Assembly (NCBI GenBank): GCA_020438355.1
Contig: JAGQUT010000018.1
Location: 1-39,407, forward strand
DNA from: Solirubrobacterales bacterium
Lineage (GTDB): Bacteria; Actinomycetota; Thermoleophilia; Solirubrobacterales; 70-9
Reading direction: 5' to 3'
Length of the DNA stretch: 39,407 bases
The notes under the pieces are model-generated. The model did no database searches and had not been told where the DNA came from. It saw only the letters and a list, made by a program, of their open reading frames with translations. Shown piece after piece: positions 20,613 to 23,536 of the stretch. The position numbers and the translations under genes were made by a program. Within the stretch, counting starts at the first letter, position 1. Each line of letters opens with the position of its first letter.

Positions 20613-20647
20613 GATCGGCCGCCGCTGAAACCCAGCGGCGGCCGATC
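20613..20647. terminator. Bidirectional hairpin terminator
   Basis: A perfect 15-bp stem, GATCGGCCGCCGCTG and its complement, with a 5-base loop (AAACC) sits between the convergent budA and MMPL genes. There is no T run on either side, so termination may depend on the very stable stem. Confidence 0.65.
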
Positions 20648-20660
20648 GGGGAGGGAACGG

Positions 20661-22763
20661 TCAGTGTCCGAAGCTGACCTTGGGGAGGTGGCGGTCCAGC
20701 CATCCGGGGATCCACCACAGTCGGGTGCCGGCCAGTCTCATCAGCACCGGCAACAGCAGCAGGCGTACCAGGGCTGCATCAAGCAGTACTGCGACACCCA
20801 GGATGATCCCCATCTCCCGCGGGGGGAGCGGGCCCGAGAGGGCGAAGGTGAAGAACACCGCCACCATCACTCCCGCGGCAGCGAACACGACCCGGCCCGA
20901 GTGGGCGAGCCCGCCGATCACCGCTTCCTTGGCGTCACCGGATTTCTCCCAGTGCTCCCTGGCCGAACTGAGCAGGAACACCGAGTAGTCCATCGATATC
21001 GCGAAGACCATCGCAAAGAAGAAGACCGGTGCCCATGCGTCAAGGAATCCCTGAGACTCGAATCCGAGCACGCTGGTCAGGTGCCCCTCCTGGAAGATCA
21101 GTTGGGCCACACCGAATGCGGCTCCCACAGCCAGGAGGTTGGTCAGCACCGCGATTGCGGCCAGGATTGGCGCCCGCAGGGCCACCAGCAGCAGCAGGAA
21201 GCCAAGTGCCATGACGATCGCGATCGCCGGGGCGGTGGTGTCGCCCAGGGCCACCTCGAGGTCATGGTTCTCCGCTGCGGCGCCGCCGACCAGAACTCCG
21301 GCAGGGACCTCGTCCCGAACCCGGTCGATCGTCTCGCCGAGTGCCGGGTCGGAGGGATCCATCTTCGGCGTAGCGGCGATCATCACGTTGCCTTCGCGGC
21401 TTTCGCCGACCACCATCACCTGCGCAATACCGGGGTCGCTTCCGAGCTCGCGGACGGTTACGTCTGCTTCGCCCTGGGGGGAAACCACCTGCAGCGTGCC
21501 GGGAGCACCCGGCCCGAATGCGTCGGCAACCTGTTCGTAGCCGACCCGGGCACCATCGCCTTCCGGTACCACCTTGATCGACGGCATTCCGGTATCGAGC
21601 GAAAAGACCGGTACACATAGGGCAAGCAGGATCAATAGTGCCGGCAGGCCGTAGGCCACCGGACGCTTCCAGATCCGCTCACCCCACGCGGCGAACTTCG
21701 GCGAGCGATGCTCTCCGGTGTGGACCCATGGCAGGCTGAGCTTGTTGACGCGATGCCCAAGTTTGCCGAGAACCGCGGGCAGCAGGGTCATGGATGCTGC
21801 CAGGACGAATGCGACTGCCAGCATGACGCCGATCGCCATCGACCTGAAGGCGGGACTCGGTACCAGCAGCACGGCGCTGAGCGAGATCAGGACGGTCACT
21901 CCCGAGAAGAGCACCGCCTTGCCAGCCGTGTCCATCGTCTCGGCGATCGCGTCGCTGGTGTTGTCATTCGATGTCAACGCCCCGCGGAAGCGGTAGACGA
22001 TGAACAGCGCGTAGTCGATGCCCAGCGCGAGTGCGAACATCATCGCGAAGTTCATCGCCCAGATCGAGATGTCGAAGAACTGGGTTCCCAGGTAAAGGGA
22101 GCCGGCAGCGGCCATCAGTCCGATGATGGTCAGCATCAGCGGCAGGCCGGCCGCTACCAGTGAGCCGAATGCCAGGACCAGGATCAGCAGCGTGACCGGC
22201 CAGGAGATCAGCTCCGACTTCATCATCGCTTCCTTGTTGGCCTGGTTGAAGTCAGACCACATTCCGGAGGCGCCGGTCAGCGAGACGGTGGTGCCTTCGC
22301 TGTCGATGGCGGCGAGCTCTTCCTTCAGGTCATCGGCGGCGCGAACCATCTGGTTCGAATCCGAAGCTGCGCCAGCCTGGATTACCGCGGTGTGTCCGTC
22401 ACGGGAGACCCAGCTCTTCCTGGACGGAAGGACGACGTTGCTGACGTCCTCCGAGCCTTCAAGAACTGCGGCGGCCTCATCGACGGTCGCATCGAACCCC
22501 GGGGAGCCGAAGGTCGAGTCCTCGCTGTGGACGACGACCATCAGGGACGACGATGACATGCCCCCGAACTGTTCGTCGATCAGCTGGCGGGTTTCGAGTG
22601 ATTCCGAGCCCGTGGCTTCCCAGCCGGCACCGGAGAGAGCGTGCTCGGCCTTGGGAGCGAAAAATCCGAGGCCAACAGCGATCACCAGCCAGATGATCGC
22701 GACAACTTTGAAGTTGTCGCTCGTCCAGCGGCCGAGTCGGCCGATCGGTCCGACCTTGTTCAT
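20661..22763 (-). CDS. MMPL/RND family membrane transporter
   Basis: Proton-driven exporter of the MmpL (RND) superfamily, often handling lipids or hydrophobic compounds. About 700 residues with the two-fold repeat of the family: helix 1, a large external loop (KAEHALSGAGWEATGS onward), five helices including ALGIDYALFIVYRFRG, then a second set with FAISMDYSVFLLSSAREHW; the Asp-Tyr pairs are the proton-relay residues. Start ATG at 22763 with GGGAG upstream; this overlaps the DUF2892 stop (ATGA), so upstream in-frame codons to 22850 are rejected. It is the last gene of a probable arsR-DUF2892-MMPL operon. Confidence 0.93.
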   Translation of the reverse strand: MNKVGPIGRLGRWTSDNFKVVAIIWLVIAVGLGFFAPKAEHALSGAGWEATGSESLETRQLIDEQFGGMSSSSLMVVVHSEDSTFGSPGFDATVDEAAAVLEGSEDVSNVVLPSRKSWVSRDGHTAVIQAGAASDSNQMVRAADDLKEELAAIDSEGTTVSLTGASGMWSDFNQANKEAMMKSELISWPVTLLILVLAFGSLVAAGLPLMLTIIGLMAAAGSLYLGTQFFDISIWAMNFAMMFALALGIDYALFIVYRFRGALTSNDNTSDAIAETMDTAGKAVLFSGVTVLISLSAVLLVPSPAFRSMAIGVMLAVAFVLAASMTLLPAVLGKLGHRVNKLSLPWVHTGEHRSPKFAAWGERIWKRPVAYGLPALLILLALCVPVFSLDTGMPSIKVVPEGDGARVGYEQVADAFGPGAPGTLQVVSPQGEADVTVRELGSDPGIAQVMVVGESREGNVMIAATPKMDPSDPALGETIDRVRDEVPAGVLVGGAAAENHDLEVALGDTTAPAIAIVMALGFLLLLVALRAPILAAIAVLTNLLAVGAAFGVAQLIFQEGHLTSVLGFESQGFLDAWAPVFFFAMVFAISMDYSVFLLSSAREHWEKSGDAKEAVIGGLAHSGRVVFAAAGVMVAVFFTFALSGPLPPREMGIILGVAVLLDAALVRLLLLPVLMRLAGTRLWWIPGWLDRHLPKVSFGH

Positions 22764-23008
22764 CGGTCGCTCCCGGTCGCGGGCCTCAGCGAGGTGACCC
22801 GGGTAAGGACCACGGAAGCAGGGCAGGCTCCAACCGCTACGTACAGCCACTGGTTGATGCCCGCCAGGACGGGCAGCAGGGCAAACCAGGGGGAAACCAG
22901 GAGGGCAAGCAGCCCGCCGACGAGGCTGACGCTACCGGCCATGGCAAAAAGGACCCTTTCAAGGGGCCAACCCCTGTTCGTCTCGCATTGTCCGCTCTTC
23001 TGAGACAT
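22760..23008 (-). CDS. Small DUF2892 (YgaP-type) membrane protein
   Basis: About 82 residues with two hydrophobic helices (RVLFAMAGSVSLVGGLLALLVSPWFALLPVLAGIN and WLYVAVGACPASVVL) around a conserved central region; matches the DUF2892 membrane module that in E. coli YgaP is fused to a rhodanese domain. Here it stands alone. Start ATG at 23008 with GGTGGAG at 23012-23018; a GTG at 23017 is in frame but overlaps that site. The stop is coupled to the MMPL start. A palindrome 25-38 bases upstream probably controls it. Confidence 0.8.
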   Translation of the reverse strand: MSQKSGQCETNRGWPLERVLFAMAGSVSLVGGLLALLVSPWFALLPVLAGINQWLYVAVGACPASVVLTRVTSLRPATGSDR

Positions 23009-23032
23009 CAACTCCACCTTTCTACAAGTTCA

Positions 23033-23046
23033 CAACTAAGTAGTTG
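23033..23046. promoter_or_regulatory. Palindromic operator, probably for the ArsR regulator
   Basis: CAACTA-AG-TAGTTG is a perfect inverted repeat, and a third CAACTA half-site lies at 23060-23065. It sits in the control region of the DUF2892-MMPL genes, just after the ArsR gene. A related ACAACTC/GAGTTGT pair lies in front of the ArsR gene. The regulator assignment is inferred from position. Confidence 0.65.
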
Positions 23047-23132
23047 AATACTGTAGCAGCAACTACTTCGGCAGGCAAGTCAGGCCTGTGGAGCAGTGCC
23101 GATCGGCCCGTAGAGGGCCGGATGCGGGTCGA

Positions 23133-23468
23133 TCAGACGCGAGTGACGATCTGGCTGAGCTCGGAAATGCGCTGCTCGACGCCCTCGCAGACTGCCTCGC
23201 ACATAGCCATGAGGCTTTCGTCTGCGATCCCGTAGTAGACGGTGTTTCCATCCTTGCGCCGACTCACCGCGCCGCCACCGTAAAGGGCCTGGAGGTGCTT
23301 CGAGACGTTCTGCTGGCTCGTATCGAGAACCTCGGCAAGGCCGCCGACGCTCTGCTCGCCTTCGCGCAACTGATCGAGGATGCGGACCCGCATCGGTTCT
23401 GAAAGCAGCTTGAACCGGGCAGTGATCAGTTCGACGAGTTCGGGAGGGAGAGGGGTAGGCAGGGCCAT
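23133..23468 (-). CDS. ArsR/SmtB family transcriptional repressor
   Basis: Winged-helix DNA-binding protein of 111 residues. The core is ARFKLLSEPMRVRILDQLREGEQSVGGLAEVL, recognition helix TSQQNVSKHLQALYGGGAVSRRKDGNTVYY, then a C-terminal helix with MCEAVCEG. The classical ELCVCD arsenic/metal site is absent; the only cysteines are the Cys-X3-Cys pair, so it may sense a thiol, sulfur or redox signal, as BigR/YgaV relatives do (inference). ATG at 23468 is chosen over a TTG at 23474; TAAGCT lies 6 nt upstream and overlaps CAACT-type sites, fitting autorepression. Confidence 0.92.
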   Translation of the reverse strand: MALPTPLPPELVELITARFKLLSEPMRVRILDQLREGEQSVGGLAEVLDTSQQNVSKHLQALYGGGAVSRRKDGNTVYYGIADESLMAMCEAVCEGVEQRISELSQIVTRV

Positions 23469-23474
23469 GAACAA

Positions 23475-23480
23475 AGCTTA
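23475..23480 (-). promoter_or_regulatory. Putative -10 element of the ArsR gene, leaderless spacing
   Basis: Read on the minus strand, TAAGCT ends 6 nt before the ATG at 23468. It abuts the ACAACTC half of an inverted repeat (23480-23486 with GAGTTGT at 23505-23511), so a bound repressor would cover the promoter. Confidence 0.45.
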
Positions 23481-23511
23481 CAACTCGACAACCATGTGCC
23501 CGGTGAGTTGT
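23480..23511. promoter_or_regulatory. Second CAACT-type inverted repeat, upstream of ArsR gene
   Basis: ACAACTC at 23480-23486 and GAGTTGT at 23505-23511 are perfect complements with an 18-base spacer; the spacing centre to centre is 25 bases. The core resembles the CAACTA/TAGTTG operator at 23033-23046, suggesting the same regulator binds both regions. Confidence 0.5.
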
Positions 23512-23536
23512 GCGTGGGCGGCAGTCGGTAAGGGTT

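What the first reader, a model, noticed from the sequence alone, without database searches (positions are those of the whole stretch)
20661..23520. ArsR-DUF2892-MMPL operon with matching palindromes at both promoters
Sequence shows a perfect CAACTA-AG-TAGTTG repeat before DUF2892-MMPL, a third half-site at 23060, and ACAACTC/GAGTTGT flanking the ArsR gene promoter. The regulator lacks the metal site and has only a Cys-X3-Cys pair. DUF2892 is elsewhere fused to rhodanese (YgaP, controlled by the ArsR-type YgaV). Together this suggests a sulfur- or redox-sensing regulator that induces a lipid/drug exporter, a pairing I do not recognise as described.
Basis: partly seen in the sequence, partly recalled or inferred. 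Interest (0 to 1): 0.68.

Follow-up and report, generated by a model that had tools for sequence, protein, structure and literature searches.

The report
Sulfide-responsive switch for an MMPL exporter
An actinobacterium carries a small repressor with a conserved two-cysteine motif, probably a sensor of toxic sulfur compounds, whose DNA sign-post sits in front of an unusual membrane exporter and of sulfide-detoxifying enzymes, so the exporter appears to be an unrecognised part of sulfide defence.

Summary
The operon is real and conserved: ArsR (23133-23468), DUF2892/YgaP-like TM protein (22760-23008) and MMPL (20661-22763), all on the minus strand. The palindrome at 23033-23046 is the core of an operator, ACAACTnnnnAGTTGT. 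It is present at 10/12 or better in 73 of 102 promoters of this ArsR family, 1 of 40 control ArsR promoters and 3 of 2040 shuffles. The family has a near-invariant Cys-X3-Cys in helix alpha5 (102/103) and no metal site. Its members sit beside DUF2892-MMPL (MMPL 73/103) or beside persulfide dioxygenase-rhodanese, SQR, rhodanese, TauE, OsmC or DUF302 genes (34/103 vs 2/40 controls), sometimes both. In the window's own genome the operator also precedes a rhodanese and, more weakly, an SQR. Where MMPL lies away from the ArsR, most copies still carry the operator. Best reading: a reactive-sulfur-sensing repressor whose regulon joins a DUF2892-MMPL exporter to sulfide detoxification. The SqrR/BigR cysteine pair (alpha2+alpha5) is absent, so this is a different sensor geometry. 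Sensing chemistry and exporter cargo are inferred.

The parts
23133..23468 (-). ArsR/SmtB-family regulator, 111 aa from ATG 23468 (TTG 23474 also possible)
   Evidence: PF01022/PF12840; NF033788 above cut-off; 14 aligned relatives at 42-58% identity and 6 close orthologues at 87-94%; model pLDDT 94, winged helix closest to SmtB/CzrA/SqrR
23187..23201 (-). Cys90-X3-Cys94 on helix alpha5 (residues 84-110), putative sensing dithiol
   Evidence: CX3C in 102 of 103 family members; helix from model
23475..23480 (-). likely -10 element TAAGCT of the arsR promoter, 6 nt before ATG (leaderless transcript)
   Evidence: similar box at the same distance in close relatives; inferred
23480..23511 (-). half-sites ACAACT / GTTGT / AGTTGT in the arsR promoter, non-canonical spacing
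   Evidence: sequence; relatives' promoters
   Evidence: site of 10/12 or better at this place in the 7 close genomes including the window, 9-11/12 in sister loci; 73/102 vs 1/40 controls in arsR promoters
23050..23058 (-). likely extended -10 TGC-TACAGT of the DUF2892-MMPL promoter; operator would start near +1
   Evidence: TGCTAnnnT kept in the close relatives; inferred
22760..23008 (-). DUF2892 / YgaP-like two-TM protein, 82 aa, conserved GxC(P) motif
   Evidence: searches (weak; 10/11 relatives match PF11127), alignments
20661..22763 (-). MMPL-family (RND-type) transporter, 700 aa, overlaps DUF2892 by 4 bp
   Evidence: PF03176 E 2.5e-76; of the matches at E<=1e-150 in 299 class genomes, 74 of 91 lie within 6.5 kb of a CX3C ArsR
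20613..20647 (.). perfect 15-nt inverted repeat between MMPL and the convergent ALDC gene, likely shared terminator
   Evidence: the repeat finder I6

Best explanation
The ArsR is a dimeric repressor of a sulfide/reactive-sulfur regulon. In the resting state it binds ACAACTnnnnAGTTGT operators: between -35 and -10 at a leaderless rhodanese gene, near +1 at DUF2892-MMPL, and probably at SQR and its own promoter. Persulfides or polysulfides formed from H2S modify the invariant Cys90/Cys94 pair on alpha5, lowering DNA affinity. DUF2892-MMPL is then co-induced with sulfide-oxidising and sulfur-transfer enzymes (SQR and rhodanese in this genome; CstB-like persulfide dioxygenase-rhodanese, TauE, OsmC, DUF302 in relatives). 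The DUF2892-MMPL pair would export a sulfur-containing or sulfur-damaged product. Supported by conserved sequence and context: operon, operator, regulon membership, CX3C invariance, loss of the metal site. Inferred: binding, repression, persulfide as inducer, export cargo.
For: ArsR-DUF2892-MMPL order conserved in several families of the class; MMPL near 73/103 family members vs 0/40 control ArsRs, sulfur genes 34/103 vs 2/40, Fisher p 4e-4. Operator 10/12 or better in 73/102 arsR promoters vs 1/40 controls, p 3e-15. Independent tests: in the own genome only 6 sites have 1 mismatch or fewer, three being in MMPL, at DUF2892 and 20 nt before the start codon of a rhodanese; that rhodanese site is kept in the 5 close genomes that have the gene, and an SQR site (10/12) in 3 of 3 close genomes. 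MMPL copies far from the ArsR still carry the operator (12/12, 12/12, 11/12, 11/12, 10/12, 10/12), in four cases in genomes whose ArsR is next to persulfide dioxygenase. 83 of 86 genomes with this MMPL have the CX3C ArsR vs 32 of 213 without. Outgroup CX3C ArsRs sit by persulfide dioxygenase, DUF302 and TauE. Domains confirmed: Lactamase_B + 2 Rhodanese, Rhodanese, Pyr_redox_2 (best NCBIfam hit type III SQR, below cut-off), TauE, OsmC. A DUF2892 transcript rises about 10-fold with H2S oxidation in Azospira (PMC5358917).
Against: No binding or induction data. The window's own arsR promoter lacks the canonical operator. Most family members have only MMPL nearby, no sulfur enzyme. The SQR site has 2 mismatches. 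Marker proteins and operator consensus were taken from target loci, so the enrichment tests are not blind, and rows are related by descent. The known persulfide-sensor cysteine pair is absent.
Confidence: 0.7

Rival explanations
1. A thiophilic metal or metalloid sensor (As/Sb, Cd, Cu): the alpha5 cysteines bind the ion and MMPL exports the toxicant or a conjugate.
For: Some atypical As(III) sensors take all their Cys ligands from alpha5 (PMC10509353); the antimony repressor AntR is among the structural neighbours.
Against: Those sensors use trigonal Cys coordination; 86 of 103 members here have exactly two Cys. No arsenic or metal gene was identified beside the operon in the window, whereas sulfur genes recur in relatives. 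SmtB alpha5 ligands are lost.
Confidence: 0.12
2. A general thiol-oxidation sensor (peroxide, disulfide or electrophile stress) using a Cys90-Cys94 switch; sulfur genes are co-regulated as part of thiol homeostasis.
For: Thioredoxin gene divergent from three members (L214, L221, L224); OsmC near seven; dithiol ArsRs such as RexT sense H2O2 (PMC8960804).
Against: Persulfide dioxygenase, SQR and rhodanese recur in the regulon; RexT uses adjacent alpha3 cysteines, not an alpha5 CX3C. Peroxide-defence genes were not searched for systematically.
Confidence: 0.12
3. An envelope-lipid switch: MMPL is a lipid exporter and the ArsR answers a lipid or membrane cue; sulfur neighbours are incidental.
For: The closest NCBIfam models of the transporter are MmpL3 and actII, far below cut-off; MMPL relatives include lipid exporters (general knowledge).
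Against: Same operator on rhodanese and SQR promoters in the window's own genome and on separated MMPL copies in genomes whose ArsR sits by persulfide dioxygenase.
Confidence: 0.05

Closest known systems
SqrR/BigR/YgaV/SoxR/HlyU persulfide-sensing ArsR group (SSN cluster 4 of PMC10509353)
   Same: ArsR fold (Z about 13 to SqrR and BigR), no metal site, two-cysteine design, neighbours/targets are rhodanese, persulfide dioxygenase, SQR and sulfur transporters
   Different: cysteines are C90 and C94 on one helix (alpha5); the SqrR positions 41/107 fall on non-Cys residues 31-32 and 97-98; main target is DUF2892-MMPL
E. coli ygaVP (ArsR-type YgaV with YgaP, rhodanese + DUF2892-type membrane domain; from general knowledge and PMC12423496)
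   Same: ArsR regulator beside a PF11127-type membrane protein, sulfide-linked
   Different: here the membrane part is a separate small protein coupled to an MMPL transporter, and the rhodanese is elsewhere in the genome under the same operator
cst/BigR-type sulfide detoxification operons (CstB-like persulfide dioxygenase-rhodanese, SQR, TauE exporter; general knowledge)
   Same: relatives of this regulator adjoin a Lactamase_B + 2 rhodanese protein, TauE and SQR-like genes
   Different: an MMPL transporter with DUF2892 is added or takes the exporter place; the regulator is neither CsoR/CstR nor a cluster-4 ArsR
SmtB/CzrA metal sensors
   Same: best sequence and structure match
   Different: alpha5 metal ligands lost; sulfur-linked targets

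Membership tests
ArsR/SmtB superfamily | ArsR winged helix-turn-helix domain | tested here: met
   PF01022, NF033788 above cut-offs; model pLDDT 94 matches SmtB, CzrA, SqrR
SqrR/BigR persulfide sensors | Cys pair in alpha2 and alpha5 (SqrR C41/C107) | tested here: not met
   equal-length sequence and structure alignment ranges put these at residues 31-32 and 97-98, none Cys
SqrR/BigR persulfide sensors | controls sulfide-metabolism genes | tested here: met
   by context and operator only: rhodanese, SQR, persulfide dioxygenase
SqrR/BigR persulfide sensors | reacts with persulfides to form a polysulfide bridge | not testable with these tools
   needs purified protein
SmtB/CzrA alpha5 metal sensors | D-x-H ... 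H-x2-E/H ligand set on alpha5 | tested here: not met
   only D83 kept; S85, G96, Q99 at the other places
CmtR Cd/Pb sensor | NCBIfam equivalog model NF047906 | tested here: not met
   46.7 bits, cut-off 150
atypical alpha5 As(III) sensors | trigonal Cys coordination with all ligands from alpha5 (PMC10509353) | tested here: not met
   two Cys in the window protein and in 86 of 103 members; a ligand from the other subunit cannot be excluded
YgaP-like TM / DUF2892 (PF11127) | Pfam match above gathering score | tested here: inconclusive
   window protein 18.5 bits vs 25.3; 10 of 11 relatives match at E<=0.05, best 1.6e-7
MMPL (PF03176) | Pfam match above gathering score | tested here: met
   257 bits, cut-off 20.5

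The most novel reading that the evidence does not exclude
A separate class of reactive-sulfur sensor in the ArsR family, with both sensing cysteines one turn apart on alpha5, that controls a dedicated DUF2892-MMPL exporter of sulfane-sulfur compounds: an RND-type arm of sulfide detoxification used across one class of actinobacteria.
Probability: 0.35. Interest if true: 0.8.

Novelty: new variant of a known kind. Interest (0 to 1): 0.62.

Why it matters
PMC10509353 places all known persulfide-sensing ArsRs in one group with cysteines in alpha2 and alpha5, and PMC12423496 notes that many sulfur-linked ArsRs lack that pair and may work differently. This family offers a clear alternative: an invariant alpha5 CX3C, a 16-bp operator readable by eye, and a regulon that can be tested at once. 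It also gives a physiological handle on DUF2892 and on a dedicated clade of MMPL transporters, whose role would be sulfide defence and not drug or lipid export by default.

Tried and rejected
Palindrome inside MMPL (22699-22720) as a second operator: exact match to the consensus but not conserved, so probably chance or codon-driven. Chlorobiaceae homologues from the genome scan: about 40% identical, the CX3C pair not kept, beside Hsp20/DnaK; set aside. ACAACCnnnnGGTTGT sites in the genus belong to an unrelated ArsR-SRPBCC gene pair. Own-genome sites at C40:25730 and C78:103847 are in or at other genes and look like chance. A close homologue of the long persulfide dioxygenase was not found in the own genome (best 28% identity). 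Single-sequence structure model was poor and not used. Two far MMPL homologues (G028, G053) lie next to TetR-like genes with no operator: paralogues outside this regulon. Rhodanese/SQR orthologues in more distant members of the genus lack the site (L301-L303, L309).

Full report
What is there. The minus strand carries arsR (23133-23468), a small membrane-protein gene (22760-23008) and an MMPL gene (20661-22763); the last two overlap by 4 bp. The ArsR is a standard winged-helix member above curated cut-offs. The MMPL is clear (PF03176, 257 bits). The small protein matches the YgaP-like TM family (former DUF2892) only weakly alone, but 10 of 11 relatives match, and the family keeps a GxC(P) motif. 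The genome is that of a Solirubrobacterales-like actinobacterium: the nearest named relatives are Solirubrobacterales MAGs.

The palindrome. CAACTA-AG-TAGTTG at 23033-23046 occurs once in the genome. Reading upstream regions of relatives showed a larger common site, ACAACTnnnnAGTTGT. Scored on 12 positions, 73 of 102 arsR promoters of the family have 10 or more matches, against 1 of 40 control ArsR promoters and 3 of 2040 shuffled sequences (Fisher p 3e-15). In the window the site is 23032-23047. In the window's close relatives it lies in the ArsR-DUF2892 gap, where these genomes seem to have an extra promoter (TGCTAnnnT just upstream), while the arsR promoter itself carries half-sites at other spacings ahead of a -10-like box 6 nt before the start codon.

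The regulator. Residues Cys90 and Cys94 are invariant in the 15-row alignment, and CX3C is present in 102 of 103 members. An AlphaFold2 model from 15 relatives (pLDDT 94) puts both on alpha5 (84-110). Alignment to SmtB leaves only one of the four alpha5 metal ligands. Alignment to SqrR and BigR indicates that neither of their two sensing cysteines is present. It therefore works like, but is not a member of, the described persulfide-sensor group (PMC10509353; PMC12423496).

Genome context. The family was traced in 61 relatives, 299 genomes of the class and 346 of the phylum. In 103 loci examined, MMPL is near 73, DUF2892 near 58, a persulfide dioxygenase-like protein near 15, TauE 13, OsmC 7, DUF302 7, rhodanese 6 and SQR 5; 34 loci have at least one sulfur gene against 2 of 40 controls (p 4e-4). 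Partner types are interleaved on the ArsR tree, though that tree is poorly resolved. Three members with no MMPL sit by a classical DUF2892 gene and a divergent thioredoxin. In an outgroup family the CX3C ArsRs are again beside persulfide dioxygenase, DUF302 and TauE, without the same operator. Domain scans support these names at the fold level (Lactamase_B plus two rhodanese domains, rhodanese, Pyr_redox_2 with best NCBIfam hit a type III SQR below cut-off, TauE, OsmC).

Tests that did not depend on neighbourhood. A scan of the whole own genome at 1 mismatch or fewer gives six sites: two in this operon, one 20 nt upstream of the start codon of a rhodanese next to sat-cysC, one at an unrelated ArsR-SRPBCC pair and two that look like chance. 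The rhodanese site is kept in all five close genomes that have the gene (the own genome included), and an SQR site with two mismatches is kept in three of three. The MMPL clade is nearly private to this regulator: 83 of 86 genomes with it have the CX3C ArsR against 32 of 213 without it, and 74 of 91 copies lie within 6.5 kb of it. Where MMPL is elsewhere in the genome, six copies still carry the operator at 10-12 of 12. In four of those genomes (G278, G269, G038, G041) the ArsR itself is beside a persulfide dioxygenase-like gene. This links the exporter and the sulfide enzymes through one regulator.

Mechanism. The site overlaps the expected RNA-polymerase footprint at the promoters looked at: between -35 and -10 of a leaderless gene (rhodanese) or at +1 (DUF2892). 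Repression relieved by modification of Cys90/Cys94 is the simplest model. Persulfide or polysulfide is the most likely inducer because the regulon makes (SQR), moves (rhodanese) and destroys (persulfide dioxygenase) such compounds. The cargo of DUF2892-MMPL is open; export of a sulfane-sulfur compound or of a damaged lipid are both possible. A DUF2892 transcript rises about tenfold during H2S oxidation in Azospira (PMC5358917), which fits but does not define a role.

Limits. Everything is sequence-based. The operator consensus and sulfur markers came from target loci, rows share ancestry, controls are 40 loci from one order, high-GC ORF calling is rough, and the literature search covers open-licence papers only.

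Noticed in passing
window 22699-22720: Perfect 10-2-10 palindrome GCGACAACTT-TG-AAGTTGTCGC inside the MMPL coding start, an exact copy of the operator consensus; not conserved in relatives.
   Followed up: yes
L143 (G000:C89:118187), L147-L151: An ArsR-SRPBCC gene pair in the same genus has its own look-alike operator ACAACCnnnnGGTTGT.
   Followed up: partly
L081-L138: Chlorobiaceae homologues (about 40% identity) without the CX3C pair sit between what look like sigma-factor and Hsp20/DnaK genes, suggesting an ArsR-type protein-stress regulator in green sulfur bacteria.
   Followed up: no
L284-L297 (family f23): Outgroup CX3C ArsRs beside persulfide dioxygenase, DUF302 and TauE with a different promoter motif (around TATTACCGTATG / GTATAATCATCAA).
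   Followed up: partly
L214, L221, L224: CX3C ArsR followed by a classical DUF2892 gene (GFCPLYKL motif) with a divergent thioredoxin gene; thioredoxin may be another target.
   Followed up: no
window 20613-20647: Perfect 15-nt inverted repeat between the MMPL gene and a convergent acetolactate decarboxylase gene, a likely two-way terminator.
   Followed up: no
L145, L146, L152, L167: The regulated rhodanese sits beside sat and cysC (cysH also seen in some of the loci), hinting that sulfide defence and sulfate assimilation are linked here.
   Followed up: partly
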